From the NCBI GenBank assembly GCA_024742735.1, contig JANSXV010000002.1:248001-312000 (forward strand): a DNA stretch of 64,000 nucleotides, in the 5' to 3' direction. A model generated the notes under the pieces. It had not been told where the DNA came from. It did no database searches and saw nothing but the letters and a program-made list of their open reading frames with translations. Position numbers and translations under genes: made by a program. Below, one piece after another: positions 45,744 through 49,863 of this stretch. This DNA is from Alphaproteobacteria bacterium (GTDB lineage: Bacteria; Pseudomonadota; Alphaproteobacteria; Caulobacterales; Maricaulaceae). Position 1 is the stretch's first letter. Every line of letters starts with the position of its first letter.

Positions 45744-45747
<4 letters not shown>
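44734..45747 (-). CDS. PhoH-like ATPase (YbeZ)
   Basis: A 337-residue P-loop protein. Walker A is [13 protein letters not shown], Walker B is [10 protein letters not shown], and [10 protein letters not shown] is the conserved arginine-finger region of the PhoH family. The first 60 residues include a KH-like segment. It is usually encoded beside ybeY and is thought to act with it on RNA. The GTG start overlaps the miaB stop (GTGA). Confidence 0.95.
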
Positions 45748-47162
<1,415 letters not shown>

Positions 47163-47296
47163 GAACCCGCCCGGCCTCCTCGCCGGAATTCGCGTCATCA
47201 AAAGGTATCGCGCGCTCAAGGCCCCTCGAGCGCGTCGGAGAGGGGGTTATGGGGATGATGAGCCTTGCTGGCAAGGGGAAGGGGGGAGACAATCGG

Positions 47297-48436
47297 CTAT
47301 TGGTTCGGACAGATGACACAATCATCTGGCGGCACCTGTTTCCGTCGATTGCCCTCCTTCCAGTTCTCCGCAATTACGCCAGCCTTTCCCAGCTCATTGA
47401 TGATTTTGTTTATCTCGGTTCTTCGAATGGGAAATTGTTGGAGCAATTCCGCTTTGTGTTCTGCATAAATAAGCGTCGGGTTTTCGACAACGCGCTTCGT
47501 CACCGCCTCTTTCACCTCTTTACGGATCGCCGCGCGACCCATATTCCACTCAGTCTCGGCAACACCTTTCGAGAATCCGGGAAAACTTACTTGTCGGGAC
47601 CTCTCTTCCTCTGCACGTTCCTTCGCCTTCGCGCGGACATAGGCATAGTTTAATTGGGCTTTCTCTTCCGCATCGCGAAAAACCTCGAGTCCAGACAAAG
47701 AATTTGTTCCAAAGAATAATATGAATTGCGTACGATCCGCTAGTGGTCGACTTACGCGGCTATGCGCTACATATTTGTACCCAGTGATATTCTTGAGCTT
47801 GTTGTCAAATATTTGGATCGCCTTGGATTCGCGATTTTCAGAAGCTGCGATTAAAGAAAGCTCTGAATCGTCAAATACATCGTAAAATGAGTTCTTTGTA
47901 GATTCCCTAGCATCGCCGAAGAATCGGTTGCTGTGATCATACATAAAGTTAATTAAAACCTCGGAATTACGACCCCCAAGTTTTGATAGGCCTTCGAACC
48001 CGAAACCCGTCCAGCCCTTAGGGTCCACGAACGTCAGGCGGAATGAATCAGCTGTGGTATCTGCAGCTTCTTGAATTATATTCTCAAACCGATCATTGAG
48101 CGCCAAGATTTTGAAGTCTTCAGACGCAAACCCTGTGACGAAGCGCTCCAATTCCAGAAAGGCGCGCCGATTTTTCTCGCAAAAAATCGCTCTTACCAAC
48201 GGCTTCTTTCGATGAGCGGCCAGTGCGGCCTGGGATTCTTTTAAGCACCTCAAAGCGATCCCGAACGAGGTATCGCGATAGGATTGAGCCCGGCTCTCCC
48301 AAGGTCCAGAGAAGCCGTCGATATAGGAGATAGGTATAGACTTATGAGAGACTTTGAATATTAGCGACTGAAGGTACGCTTGAAGTATCAAGTGCTTTGT
48401 TTCGGTCTGCTCCCGACCCTCATATGACTCGGTCAA
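47297..48436 (-). CDS. tcmP: three-Cys-motif partner protein TcmP
   Basis: A 379-residue protein matching the TcmP family, named for its constant neighbour, a three-cysteine protein. The first 180 residues look like a Rossmann-type methyltransferase-like fold: KHLILQAYL (14-22), the glycine-turn motif YIDGFSGP (38-45), FCEKN (85-89), FVDPKGWTG (136-144) and INFMYDH (162-168). The C-terminal end contains a helix-turn-helix-like stretch (RRTEINKIINELGKAGVI). Translation starts at TTG with AGGGGG before it, nine bases after the partner gene. Base composition is far AT-richer than the genome (26 G+C of 60 at 47881-47940). Function is unknown. Confidence 0.85.
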   Translation of the reverse strand: MTESYEGREQTETKHLILQAYLQSLIFKVSHKSIPISYIDGFSGPWESRAQSYRDTSFGIALRCLKESQAALAAHRKKPLVRAIFCEKNRRAFLELERFVTGFASEDFKILALNDRFENIIQEAADTTADSFRLTFVDPKGWTGFGFEGLSKLGGRNSEVLINFMYDHSNRFFGDARESTKNSFYDVFDDSELSLIAASENRESKAIQIFDNKLKNITGYKYVAHSRVSRPLADRTQFILFFGTNSLSGLEVFRDAEEKAQLNYAYVRAKAKERAEEERSRQVSFPGFSKGVAETEWNMGRAAIRKEVKEAVTKRVVENPTLIYAEHKAELLQQFPIRRTEINKIINELGKAGVIAENWKEGNRRKQVPPDDCVICPNQ

Positions 48437-48445
48437 ATCGGCCCC

Positions 48446-49204
48446 CTATTCGGCGGCCACACCTCGAGCGTTAGCCGCTTGCATCTCCTGAGGGTATTCG
48501 TTCCATTCGCGGCCTTCAAGTAACCGGCCGCCGGATTTGGGACGGATGCCGCCCCATTGCTTGAAGAAGAAGGGAACGCCCTGGTTCACGCATTGGTCGC
48601 GCACTGCAACGGCCCAGGCTTCTTCCATCGGTCGGGCGCCAGGACCGCTCTCTCCACCGACGATCACCCAGTGAATGCCCACTAGATTGATTGCGCCGAG
48701 TGGGCCGAGCAGGGGTTCGACCGAAAGAAAGCGAACGGCGGCATGTGTCGCCCTGAGGTGATCGATCCGCTTGGCCTTGTCGCGGTTCTCGACGGACACG
48801 CCGAGCCAGATGTGCTCCGGGCAGCCGCTCGGTCCATATCGGCGATTTATATAGTTGCGCATGAGTGAGCTGCGCTTGGTCAGCAGTTGGAACTGATGCC
48901 AGTCCGCCCGTTCCATCGTGTCGAAGACCTGATCGATCAGGCTAACCGGCACATTCTTGTGAAACAGGTCGCCCATAGAATTCACAAAAACGCGTTTCGG
49001 CCTTCGCCAGGTCAGCGGCTGTCCGATGCGTTCGGGTCTAAGCACGAGATCGAAACCGAACTCAAACGGGTGGTTCTTCACGCCACGGAACCGTTCAGAG
49101 AAGCGTTCTGCGTAGCAATTGTCACAGCCAGGTCCGACCTTCGTGCACCCAGTTACTGGATTCCACGTGGCGTTCGTCCATTCGATTGCAGATTGAAGGG
49201 CCAT
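48446..49204 (-). CDS. three-Cys-motif protein (phage Gp37/Gp68, DUF5131 family)
   Basis: A 252-residue protein of the Gp37/Gp68 or DUF5131 family. Cys20, Cys27 and Cys30 (GCTKVGPGCDNCYAERF) form a C-x6-C-x2-C motif resembling a widened radical-SAM cluster site. Other family blocks are VFVNSMGDLFHKNV (72-85), FQLLTKR, WLGVSVEN, LSVEPLLGP, WVIVGGESGPGARPM and PFFFKQWGG; together they suggest a TIM-barrel. It precedes tcmP by nine bases and shares its transcript. No phage structural genes are nearby, so the phage label is historical. The two proteins are expected to work together; the substrate is unknown. Confidence 0.88.
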   Translation of the reverse strand: MALQSAIEWTNATWNPVTGCTKVGPGCDNCYAERFSERFRGVKNHPFEFGFDLVLRPERIGQPLTWRRPKRVFVNSMGDLFHKNVPVSLIDQVFDTMERADWHQFQLLTKRSSLMRNYINRRYGPSGCPEHIWLGVSVENRDKAKRIDHLRATHAAVRFLSVEPLLGPLGAINLVGIHWVIVGGESGPGARPMEEAWAVAVRDQCVNQGVPFFFKQWGGIRPKSGGRLLEGREWNEYPQEMQAANARGVAAE

Positions 49205-49312
49205 CGCGCATTTGTAGCACAGCGGCTGAAAAGAGGGTTAATGGTGGTGTCGGTAGCCACACTCGCCCGCCTCGCCGGTTGAGGTCGGAACTCAGTTAGA
49301 AGAAGTTTACCC

Positions 49313-49337
49313 AAGTTTATGCGCTCCGCATAAACTT
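49313..49337. repeat. perfect AT-rich hairpin at the fur-side edge of the tcmP cassette
   Basis: Arms AAGTTTATGCG (49313-49323) and complement (49327-49337) around CTC. A partial copy GAAGTTTACCC lies just left at 49302. There is no T run, so it is not a standard terminator. It may mark an insertion boundary or a recombination or regulatory site. Confidence 0.6.
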
Positions 49338-49347
49338 CCCTGACCCC

Positions 49348-49764
49348 CTACTCCCCGTCCTTCAGCTTCGTGCCGTACAGCTCCAGGCGGTGGTCGACGA
49401 GCTTGTAGCCGAGCTTGCGGGCGATGGCTTCCTGGAGTTGTTCGATCTCTTCGTCGAAGAACTCGATCACCTCGCCGGAATTCATGTCGATCAGGTGGTC
49501 GTGGTGCTCGTCGGGGGCTTCTTCATAGCGCGAGCGGCCGTCGCGGAAGTCGTGGCGCTCGATGATGCCGGCGTCTTCAAACAGGCGCACCGTGCGATAG
49601 ACCGTGGCCAGCGAGATGCGGTTGTCCTGGGCGCTGGCGCGGCGGTGCAGCTCCTCGGCGTCGGGATGGTCTTCGGCTTCGGACAGAACCCGCGCGATGA
49701 CGCGGCGCTGTTCAGTCATGCGCAGGCCTTTCTCCACGCAGAGCTTTTCGATGCGGTCGGGCAT
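49348..49764 (-). CDS. fur: ferric uptake regulator Fur
   Basis: A 138-residue metalloregulator. The winged helix is in the first 80 residues (GLRMTEQRRVIARVLSE, then ISLATVYRTVRLFEDAGII). The metal-binding part carries EEAPDEHHDHLID and the later DHRLELYG. As in most alphaproteobacterial Fur proteins there is no C-x2-C structural zinc site. The start has GGGAGG seven bases upstream; an earlier in-frame Met would add 26 atypical residues. It follows rimI in the same direction. A Fur-like box lies before sdhC in this window. Confidence 0.96.
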   Translation of the reverse strand: MPDRIEKLCVEKGLRMTEQRRVIARVLSEAEDHPDAEELHRRASAQDNRISLATVYRTVRLFEDAGIIERHDFRDGRSRYEEAPDEHHDHLIDMNSGEVIEFFDEEIEQLQEAIARKLGYKLVDHRLELYGTKLKDGE

Positions 49765-49863
49765 GGCCGGCCTCCCTGTAACCGTGGGCTGAGTCGCGCT
49801 GACCCCCTTGATACGCCTGCGTCCTTCGCCGTGTCCATACAAGGCCGGGCTTAATCCTGCCGC

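What the first reader, a model, noticed from the sequence alone, without database searches (positions are those of the whole stretch)
47297..49204. TcmP plus three-Cys-motif cassette inserted between miaB and fur
Two adjacent leftward genes encode a TcmP-family protein (Rossmann/methyltransferase-like motifs YIDGFSGP and FVDPKGW plus a helix-turn-helix-like end) and its namesake three-Cys partner (C-x6-C-x2-C, radical-SAM-like). Base composition falls sharply (24 and 26 G+C of 60 in lines 47881-48000), unlike the rest of the window, so horizontal acquisition is likely. The cassette interrupts an order (fur next to miaB) frequent in related genomes. To my knowledge the pair has no established function; a nucleic-acid modification or defence role is a reasonable hypothesis, with the three-Cys protein as a possible Fe-S enzyme and TcmP as its DNA- or RNA-directed partner.
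Basis: partly seen in the sequence, partly recalled or inferred. Interest (0 to 1): 0.75.

Follow-up and report, generated by a model that had tools for sequence, protein, structure and literature searches.

The report
Mobile SOS-linked radical-SAM and methylase-like pair
A two-gene cassette slipped in between two housekeeping genes pairs an enzyme resembling a UV-damage repair enzyme with an exchangeable partner resembling an RNA methylase; many relatives carry the DNA-damage switch, so it may repair or mark damaged nucleic acid, which can now be tested.

Summary
DUF5131 (48446-49204) and TcmP (47297-48436) lie in a 2,057-bp insertion (47289-49345) between fur and miaB; none of 29 relatives' fur loci examined has it there. 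The pair is already catalogued (NCBIfam TcmP; PADLOC candidates PDC-M30/M41), but no paper seen gives a function. New here: (1) DUF5131 models like spore photoproduct lyase, and its Cys region shares NPxxGC...CxxCYA with PA0069, a radical-SAM family with a LexA box in 18 of 18 loci scored. (2) TcmP models like methyltransferases, RlmJ first on realignment, keeping the equivalents of RlmJ's catalytic Lys and Asp but with DPxG for DPPY. (3) TcmP is replaced wholesale beside near-identical DUF5131 (92% versus 16% identity). (4) In mostly alphaproteobacterial loci an exact LexA box (GTTC-N7-GTTC) lies within 100 bp upstream in 14 of 27 cassettes versus 5 of 290 neighbouring genes. Against: the window copy has only a one-mismatch box, elsewhere boxes are rare, and no interface was established. 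Best reading: a mobile, damage-inducible nucleic-acid repair or modification pair with a swappable targeting partner (0.45). Anti-phage defence is the main rival (0.3).

The parts
47289..49345 (.). Inserted segment (2,057 bp) between fur and miaB
   Evidence: Homology to the empty site of L012 ends at 49346 and resumes at 47288, with about 8 bp between in the relative; none of 29 relatives' fur loci shows the cassette.
48446..49204 (-). DUF5131 (phage Gp37/Gp68 family), radical-SAM-like enzyme
   Evidence: PF07505 E 4e-98; TIGR04471 radical-SAM family 70.5 bits, below its cut-off of 355; model like spore photoproduct lyase.
49115..49147 (-). C20-x6-C27-x2-C30, putative [4Fe-4S] site within NPxxGC...GCxxCYA
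   Evidence: All three Cys 50 of 50; shared signature with the PA0069 radical-SAM family.
48446..48448 (-). TAG stop of DUF5131; TcmP opens 9 bases further on in the same frame
   Evidence: Read-through translation shows one stop between the genes.
47297..48436 (-). TcmP, methyltransferase fold (RlmJ-like) with C-terminal winged-helix-like region
   Evidence: TIGR04474 99.2 bits; AlphaFold2 pLDDT 93.0, pTM 0.92; RlmJ Z 15.2.
48395..48397 (-). K14, conserved in 97 of 98 TcmPs; proposed equivalent of RlmJ K18
   Evidence: register taken from the aligned ends of the fold match (model 7 with chain 11), not read residue by residue.
48299..48325 (-). Methyltransferase motif I (YIDGFSGPW, residues 38-46)
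   Evidence: D40 96 of 98, G44 98 of 98; the profile aligns here with YLDTHAGAG of RlmJ.
48014..48025 (-). Motif IV DPKG (residues 138-141), in the place of DPPY of RlmJ
   Evidence: D138 98 of 98, P139 85 of 98, G141 85 of 98; DP aligns with D164-P165 of RlmJ.
47297..47575 (-). C-terminal winged-helix-like region (residues 288-379)
   Evidence: Helices and strands of the model; PF22560 GMT-wHTH in 30 of 75 TcmPs, not scored in the window copy.
49288..49302 (-). CTTCTAACTGAGTTC, one mismatch from the LexA box GTTC-N7-GTTC, 98 bp before DUF5131; not significant alone
   Evidence: 33 of 426 window tiles of 150 bp also hold a box with at most one mismatch.
49315..49335 (.). GTTTATGCG-N3-CGCATAAAC inverted repeat inside the insert; unknown role
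   Evidence: Only copy in the genome at up to 2 mismatches.
49348..49842 (-). fur, flanking gene
   Evidence: PF01475; matched in 36 of 37 genomes searched.
45744..47219 (-). miaB, flanking gene
   Evidence: TIGR01574 528.7 bits.

Best explanation
The cassette is a mobile, typically damage-inducible nucleic-acid repair or modification pair. DUF5131 is the constant catalytic subunit: a radical-SAM enzyme of spore-photoproduct-lyase-like build that would use [4Fe-4S]/SAM to make a 5'-deoxyadenosyl radical and act on a base or lesion. TcmP is the exchangeable partner: a methyltransferase fold closest to RlmJ, with a winged-helix-like end, that would bind the nucleic acid, hold a flipped base near K14/D138 and set the target, possibly also transferring a methyl group. 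Shown by calls: the pairing, the folds as predicted models, the conserved residues, the LexA boxes in relatives, the partner exchange, the insertion. Inferred: the cluster, the chemistry, the substrate (DNA more likely than RNA), physical contact, and SOS control of the window copy.
For: Pairing: TcmP lies next to DUF5131 in 65 of 80 genome loci, one of them a fusion; all 6 genomes of 61 (own included) with TcmP over the cut-off have DUF5131 beside it. DUF5131: spore photoproduct lyase 4fhg Foldseek E 9.6e-4 and 4fhf Z 12.8, 3.1 A over 194 residues, the only radical-SAM protein among the 50 rows shown; signature NPxxGC-(x3 or x6)-CxxCYA shared with PA0069, hhalign E 2e-4 over 19 columns, against 0.038 for LipA (away from the Cys) and 0.22 for MiaB (9 columns over two Cys). 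TcmP: RlmJ first when Foldseek's candidates are realigned (Z 15.2-15.7) and by profile (E 0.03); K14 97 of 98 and D138 98 of 98 correspond to RlmJ residues needed for activity (PMC3814359, abstract and passages). Damage: exact LexA box within 100 bp in 14 of 27 cassettes against 5 of 290 neighbours, Fisher 2e-13; the same dyad tops an unbiased scan, 13 of 22 with 0.08 expected; that motif is the alphaproteobacterial LexA site (PMC8565304, passages) and stands before recA and lexA of this genome. PA0069 has the box in 18 of 18 loci scored, LipA in 0 of 12. Comamonas plasmid: an S24-peptidase protein with a putative HTH heads the operon. M. tuberculosis: Rv2734, Rv2735c, recX and recA form one cluster of genes changed by mitomycin C (PMC5057432, one passage). 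Exchange: L075/L076 DUF5131 92%, TcmP 16%; L136/L007 DNA 90.7% up to 22 bp before the end of DUF5131, then no match.
Against: The window copy has no exact LexA box, and exact boxes are not rare in the genome (79, against 45 for the reversed control pattern). The dyad scan found nothing in 34 other-phylum or 35 viral loci; single exact boxes there number 2 each within 300 bp (L096, L110; L135, L140). 0 of 3 alphaproteobacterial plasmids had one, and no box stands before the Comamonas S24 gene. Of 5 relatives' cassettes in this order, 2 had an exact box (L002 at -18, L007 at -136), 1 more a one-mismatch box (L005) and 2 none. A TcmP so variable fits a conflict system better than housekeeping repair. 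TcmP lacks DPPY; Foldseek itself ranks Trm1 first for TcmP and shows no RlmJ in its 50 rows. DUF5131 reaches no SPL model at E 1e-3, its motif is C-x6-C-x2-C rather than C-x3-C-x2-C, and its profile finds no credible PDB relative. The pair model's pTM of 0.67 gives no interface. The loci were chosen by similarity to this DUF5131, and related loci are not independent.
Confidence: 0.45

Rival explanations
1. Anti-phage defence: TcmP senses or marks an invader's nucleic acid and DUF5131 damages or modifies it; SOS control would be a way to sense infection.
For: PADLOC lists both proteins as PDC-M30/M41 candidates; patchy, mobile distribution; partner exchange; neighbours include Abi proteins, GmrSD-like and EcoRI-like methylase genes, a type ISP R-M gene and, in L104, L105 and L116, type I R-M-like genes (named by eye from the sequences; MTase_I models match 3 of 114 nearest neighbours); PDC-M30 predicted in 32 P. 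aeruginosa strains, 68.8% of them resistant (PMC10855318, one passage); COG4422, by recall the COG of DUF5131, is enriched in sponge symbionts but not linked to the R-M network there (PMC5649159, one passage).
Against: No functional test found. The neighbour scans show scattered families, are capped at 25 rows and have no background control. Phages carry DUF5131 alone beside their own replication genes. The resistance figure has no baseline in the passage read.
Confidence: 0.3
2. Self-marking hypermodification: the pair adds a base modification to host or element DNA that protects it or sets its expression; phages use DUF5131 alone for the same end.
For: Two SAM-type folds side by side; in three phages DUF5131 lies among RecT, resolvase and replication-type genes, in two of them with a DNA methylase; exchangeable partner as in specificity subunits.
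Against: No neighbour family recurs in more than 6 of the pair loci, so no cognate nuclease goes with the pair as a rule; LexA control is unusual for a constitutive mark.
Confidence: 0.15
3. RNA-directed system: TcmP acts on rRNA or tRNA as RlmJ or Trm1 do, and DUF5131 repairs or modifies RNA.
For: The closest solved folds include rRNA and tRNA methyltransferases.
Against: The damage-type regulation is a DNA theme; motif IV differs from DPPY.
Confidence: 0.07
4. Selfish or degenerate cargo without function in this strain.
For: Patchy distribution; the window copy lacks an exact box; one relative's TcmP lies against a transposase-like gene.
Against: Both frames are intact with conserved motifs.
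Confidence: 0.03

Closest known systems
PADLOC candidates PDC-M30 and PDC-M41
   Same: Same two components (DUF5131 as B, TcmP as A).
   Different: PADLOC gives a candidate label only. The B models of both labels score this DUF5131 alike (335.9 and 337.4 bits), and TcmPs are exchanged between closely similar DUF5131s, so the two may be one system.
Spore photoproduct lyase / SplB (COG1533) and PA0069-family radical-SAM proteins
   Same: Fold match of the model; NPxxGC...CxxCYA signature; LexA box before PA0069 in this group; SplB is reported SOS-regulated in several species (PMC8565304, passages).
   Different: Three more residues between the first two Cys, a dedicated exchangeable partner, mobile; no hit to an SPL family model. 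That PA0069 belongs to COG1533 is recalled.
RlmJ, 23S rRNA m6A2030 methyltransferase
   Same: Best realigned fold match and best profile match; Lys and Asp equivalents conserved.
   Different: DPxG instead of DPPY; C-terminal winged-helix-like region; found beside DUF5131. Foldseek alone ranks Trm1 first.
Radical SAM mobile pair protein A (TIGR04471)
   Same: All 50 DUF5131s scanned match it at E 1e-5 or better.
   Different: Window protein 70.5 bits against an equivalog cut-off of 355; that family's own partner was not examined.

Membership tests
TcmP (TIGR04474) | Score over the curated cut-off (53 bits) | tested here: met
   99.2 bits.
DUF5131 (PF07505) | Score over the gathering score (28.9 bits) | tested here: met
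   328.2 bits over the whole profile.
PADLOC PDC-M30/M41 | Adjacent A and B components | tested here: met
   B 335.9-337.4 bits, A 56.5 bits (M30) and 27.8 bits (M41); no curated cut-offs are shown.
PADLOC PDC-M30/M41 | Anti-phage activity | not testable with these tools
   No assay; two papers mention PDC-M30, one read in a passage, the other seen in the listing only.
Radical SAM superfamily | Canonical C-x3-C-x2-C motif | tested here: not met
   C-x6-C-x2-C, invariant in 50 of 50.
Radical SAM superfamily | Radical-SAM fold | tested here: met
   Model residues 1-216 align with spore photoproduct lyase, Z 12.8, 3.1 A over 194; a predicted two-domain model only.
Radical SAM superfamily | [4Fe-4S] cluster and SAM cleavage | not testable with these tools
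   Needs anaerobic biochemistry.
Spore photoproduct lyase (TIGR03886) / PA0069 (NF033668) | Hit to a family model | tested here: not met
   NCBIfam scan at E 1e-3 gave only TIGR04471.
Spore photoproduct lyase (TIGR03886) / PA0069 (NF033668) | Cluster-site signature NPxxGC-C-xx-CYA | tested here: inconclusive
   Shared with PA0069 apart from three inserted residues; hhalign probability 45%, E 2e-4, 19 columns.
RlmJ | Rossmann methyltransferase fold of RlmJ type | tested here: inconclusive
   Rossmann methyltransferase fold clear; RlmJ Z 15.2, 3.4 A over 209, but the next family has 14.8 and Foldseek ranks Trm1 first.
RlmJ | Motif IV DPPY | tested here: not met
   DPKG here; G at that place in 85 of 98.
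RlmJ | Catalytic Lys (K18) and Asp (D164) | tested here: met
   D138 by profile alignment; K14 by register of the fold match, less direct.
SOS regulon (LexA box) | GTTC-N7-GTTC upstream of the window copy | tested here: not met
   Only CTTCTAACTGAGTTC at -98, one mismatch.
SOS regulon (LexA box) | GTTC-N7-GTTC upstream of relatives' cassettes | tested here: met
   14 of 27 loci L053-L082 within 100 bp; elsewhere rare: 4 of the other loci within 300 bp.

The most novel reading that the evidence does not exclude
A previously unrecognised class of SOS-inducible direct-reversal repair (or damage-directed modification) in which one constant spore-photoproduct-lyase-like radical-SAM enzyme works with interchangeable methyltransferase-fold partners that choose the lesion or target, traded between genomes on mobile elements.
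Probability: 0.25. Interest if true: 0.85.

Novelty: new variant of a known kind. Interest (0 to 1): 0.62.

Why it matters
The LexA boxes and the fold matches give the pair a concrete, cheaply testable role in the damage response. Partner exchange beside a constant radical-SAM enzyme would be a modular design, and it bears on whether PADLOC candidates M30 and M41 are one system.

Tried and rejected
LexA-type boxes of other groups (GAAC-N4-GTTC, CTGT-N8-ACAG) upstream of pairs: 1 and 0 of 89 loci, no enrichment. Among 12 plasmid loci one Arthrobacter cassette had GAACACGTGTTC at -41, the alphaproteobacterial box occurred in none, and two Pseudomonas loci had a looser CTG-N10-CAG match at -247.

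Unbiased dyads outside loci L053-L082: nothing clearly above shuffles.

A defence-island statistic: nearest-neighbour scans showed scattered R-M and other hits, but I had no matched control set and the lists are capped, so I make no enrichment claim.

Foldseek's first matches for the pair model were PRMT5 chains across both halves, with TM-scores below 0.2 and rmsd above 20 A; I take them as chance arrangement of a barrel and a methyltransferase. For TcmP alone Foldseek put Trm1 first and no RlmJ among the 50 rows; RlmJ came first only on realignment and by profile.

Alignment A3 (one fusion plus unpaired rows) put TcmP rows on the DUF5131 half and was dropped for A5. The spore photoproduct lyase model TIGR03886 found no member in 61 relatives, so PA0069 (NF033668) was used instead. 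Radical-SAM families other than spore photoproduct lyase are not excluded for DUF5131; its domain was not searched alone. TcmP as a plain m6A methyltransferase: set aside because DPPY is missing. PHROGs gave no function.

Rows dropped before counts: of 104 non-fused pair loci 103 could be turned into references and 92 were kept (TcmP at least 240 aa, not near-duplicates); 89 of those have 200 bp upstream. A2 uses 75 and A4 50 sequences. In one search I gave 22 of the 40 viral loci without adjacent TcmP. PA0069 was over its cut-off in 29 of 41 genomes; 20 loci were held and 18 scored, and for LipA 14 held and 12 scored.

Not verified: that Rv2734 is a DUF5131 protein, and that BCG_2748c (three-Cys-motif partner domain) is Rv2735c; both are from gene order and recall.
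Full report
What is there. Two leftward genes lie between fur and miaB at the stated coordinates: DUF5131 (48446-49204) and TcmP (47297-48436). Both are secure family members (PF07505 328 bits; TIGR04474 99.2 bits). They share a frame, with a single TAG and three codons between them. TcmP is AT-rich (G+C 0.477) and DUF5131 intermediate (0.586) against 0.667 for the window. TcmP is more AT-rich than its DUF5131 in 82 of 92 pairs from elsewhere (16 of 22 and 66 of 70), so the two genes may not share a history.

Insertion. In relative L012 the sequence runs straight from fur to miaB; homology to the window stops at 49346 and resumes at 47288, with about 8 bp between. fur was matched in 35 relatives, and the loci of 29 were held: 20 have miaB directly after fur, 4 have other sequence of about 1.1-1.3 kb there, 5 show no miaB in the piece held, and none shows the cassette. 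In the genus, TcmP scores over its cut-off in 3 of 15 genomes, own included, and the other two copies lie elsewhere. This is a patchily distributed mobile cassette at a spot that accepts other genes too.

The pair. In 80 genome loci found by DUF5131 (the best 80 of at least 585 matches), TcmP is adjacent in 65: 36 after, 26 before, 1 convergent, 1 divergent and 1 fused (L078). Of the 15 without it, 6 are near contig ends. In 80 viral loci it is adjacent in 40; of the other 40, 22 whole records were searched and none holds TcmP, though such records may be fragments and no completeness is given. Among 61 genomes (own included) all 6 with TcmP over the cut-off hold DUF5131 next to it, while 4 of the 10 with DUF5131 have no TcmP over the cut-off. 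PADLOC lists the two as candidates PDC-M30 and PDC-M41. Searches for the names gave 3, 0, 1, 2 and 8 papers; the ones I opened (passages only) give no function, and several were seen in the listing only.

DUF5131. C20, C27 and C30 are invariant in 50 of 50. In the modelled pair (pLDDT 88.7) the match of this half is spore photoproduct lyase: Foldseek 4fhg E 9.6e-4, 4fhf Z 12.8, 3.1 A over 194 residues. No other radical-SAM protein is among the 50 rows shown, but lower rows were not seen and the half was not searched alone. By sequence it matches a mobile radical-SAM family (TIGR04471, 50 of 50 members; the window protein is far below that model's cut-off). It shares NPxxGC...GCxxCYA with the PA0069 family, with three extra residues between the first two Cys: hhalign E 2e-4, probability 45%, 19 columns, against 0.038 for LipA (aligned away from the Cys) and 0.22 for MiaB (9 columns over two Cys). 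It is therefore SPL-like in build, not shown to be a spore photoproduct lyase; its profile finds no credible PDB relative.

TcmP. The model is confident (pLDDT 93.0, pTM 0.92) and is a Rossmann methyltransferase. When Foldseek's candidates are realigned RlmJ ranks first (Z 15.2, 3.4 A over 209), with other methyltransferases close behind at 14.8. A sequence profile of 75 TcmPs also puts RlmJ first, weakly (E 0.03). Foldseek alone puts Trm1 first and shows no RlmJ in 50 rows. RlmJ needs K18 and D164 (PMC3814359, abstract and passages); TcmP keeps K14 (97 of 98) and D138 (98 of 98) but has DPxG for DPPY. A winged-helix domain, PF22560, is recognised in 30 of 75 TcmPs, not in the window copy, whose model ends in a similar arrangement.

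Constant enzyme, exchangeable partner. Over 98 pairs the mean identity is 54.5% for DUF5131 and 21.3% for TcmP (sampling by DUF5131 inflates its figure). L075 and L076 share 92% of DUF5131 and 16% of TcmP. L136 and L007 are 90.7% identical in DNA from 397 bp before DUF5131 to 22 bp before its end, then no match; L136 and L075 match through both genes (85.1%), and L076 and L007 do too (81.8%), while TcmP of L007 and L075 is 16% identical. This is replacement of the partner, not drift. L058 and L068 carry two TcmPs in a row.

Damage regulation. Testing known LexA boxes upstream gave 16 of 89 loci with GTTC-N7-GTTC within 300 bp against 0.7 expected. An unbiased dyad scan ranks the same repeat first in loci L053-L082: 13 of 22, 0.08 expected, maximum 3 for any dyad in 60 shuffles. 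Within 100 bp the exact box is present in 14 of 27 cassettes there and before 5 of 290 neighbouring genes; with one mismatch allowed, 19 of 27 against 29 of 290. Two of the five background boxes are the cassette's own, read from a divergent neighbour (L055, L067). These loci are mostly Alphaproteobacteria, whose LexA motif this is (PMC8565304, passages); some are close relatives of each other (L053-L055), so they are not independent. In the window's genome the box stands before recA and lexA, though it occurs 79 times in all, against 45 for the reversed control pattern. PA0069 carries it in 18 of 18 loci scored, own included, and LipA in 0 of 12.

Limits of that signal. The window copy has only a one-mismatch box 98 bp upstream, which 33 of 426 window tiles of 150 bp also have, so SOS control of this copy is unproven. 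Of 5 cassettes in relatives, L002 and L007 have an exact box (-18, -136), L005 a one-mismatch box and L003 and L004 none. The dyad scan shows nothing in 34 other-phylum or 35 viral loci; exact boxes within 300 bp are L096, L110, L135 and L140. 0 of 3 alphaproteobacterial plasmids have one.

Independent hints. On a Comamonas plasmid an S24-peptidase protein with a putative HTH overlaps the start of the pair by 4 bp, but no known box stands before it. In M. tuberculosis Rv2734, Rv2735c, recX and recA form one cluster of genes changed by mitomycin C (PMC5057432, one passage), and Rv2735c is at least partly co-transcribed with recA-recX (PMC3062782, passages). That these are the DUF5131 and TcmP genes rests partly on recall.

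Reading. A radical-SAM enzyme built like a UV-lesion repair enzyme, a nucleic-acid methyltransferase-like fold beside it, and damage-type regulation in many relatives together favour a damage-induced repair or modification pair, with TcmP as the targeting part (0.45). Partner exchange, mobility and R-M or Abi neighbours in some loci keep anti-phage defence open (0.3). The pair model's pTM of 0.67 does not establish an interface.

Noticed in passing
L078:1383-3062: DUF5131 and TcmP fused in one 560-aa frame in a Latescibacterota assembly; the only fusion among 160 loci.
   Followed up: partly
L058:9998-12901 and L068:9992-12908: One DUF5131 followed by two different TcmPs in tandem.
   Followed up: no
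L007 (G011): TcmP of a genus relative ends near a transposase-like gene and looks truncated.
   Followed up: no
L244 (G000:C30:852366-853412): The resident PA0069-family radical-SAM gene has a LexA box, as in all 18 loci scored.
   Followed up: yes
L018, L025, L030, L040 between fur and miaB: Four relatives have other sequence of about 1.1-1.3 kb with long ORFs at the same spot, so fur-miaB is a recurrent insertion site.
   Followed up: partly
window 49315-49335: 21-base inverted repeat inside the insert, unique in the genome; operator, terminator or trace of insertion.
   Followed up: partly
L218, L224, L232 (Pseudomonas plasmids): A site-specific integrase gene lies directly before DUF5131-TcmP in the same direction, suggesting a mobile integrase-cassette unit.
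   Followed up: no
L226:4001-8302 and L229:1-4795: TcmP next to GmrSD-like and EcoRI-like methylase genes (Rhodococcus) and overlapping a type ISP R-M gene (Leptospira biflexa).
   Followed up: no
L214-L216 (phages): Phage DUF5131 with no annotated TcmP beside it lies among RecT, resolvase and, in two of three, DNA methylase and replication-initiation genes.
   Followed up: partly
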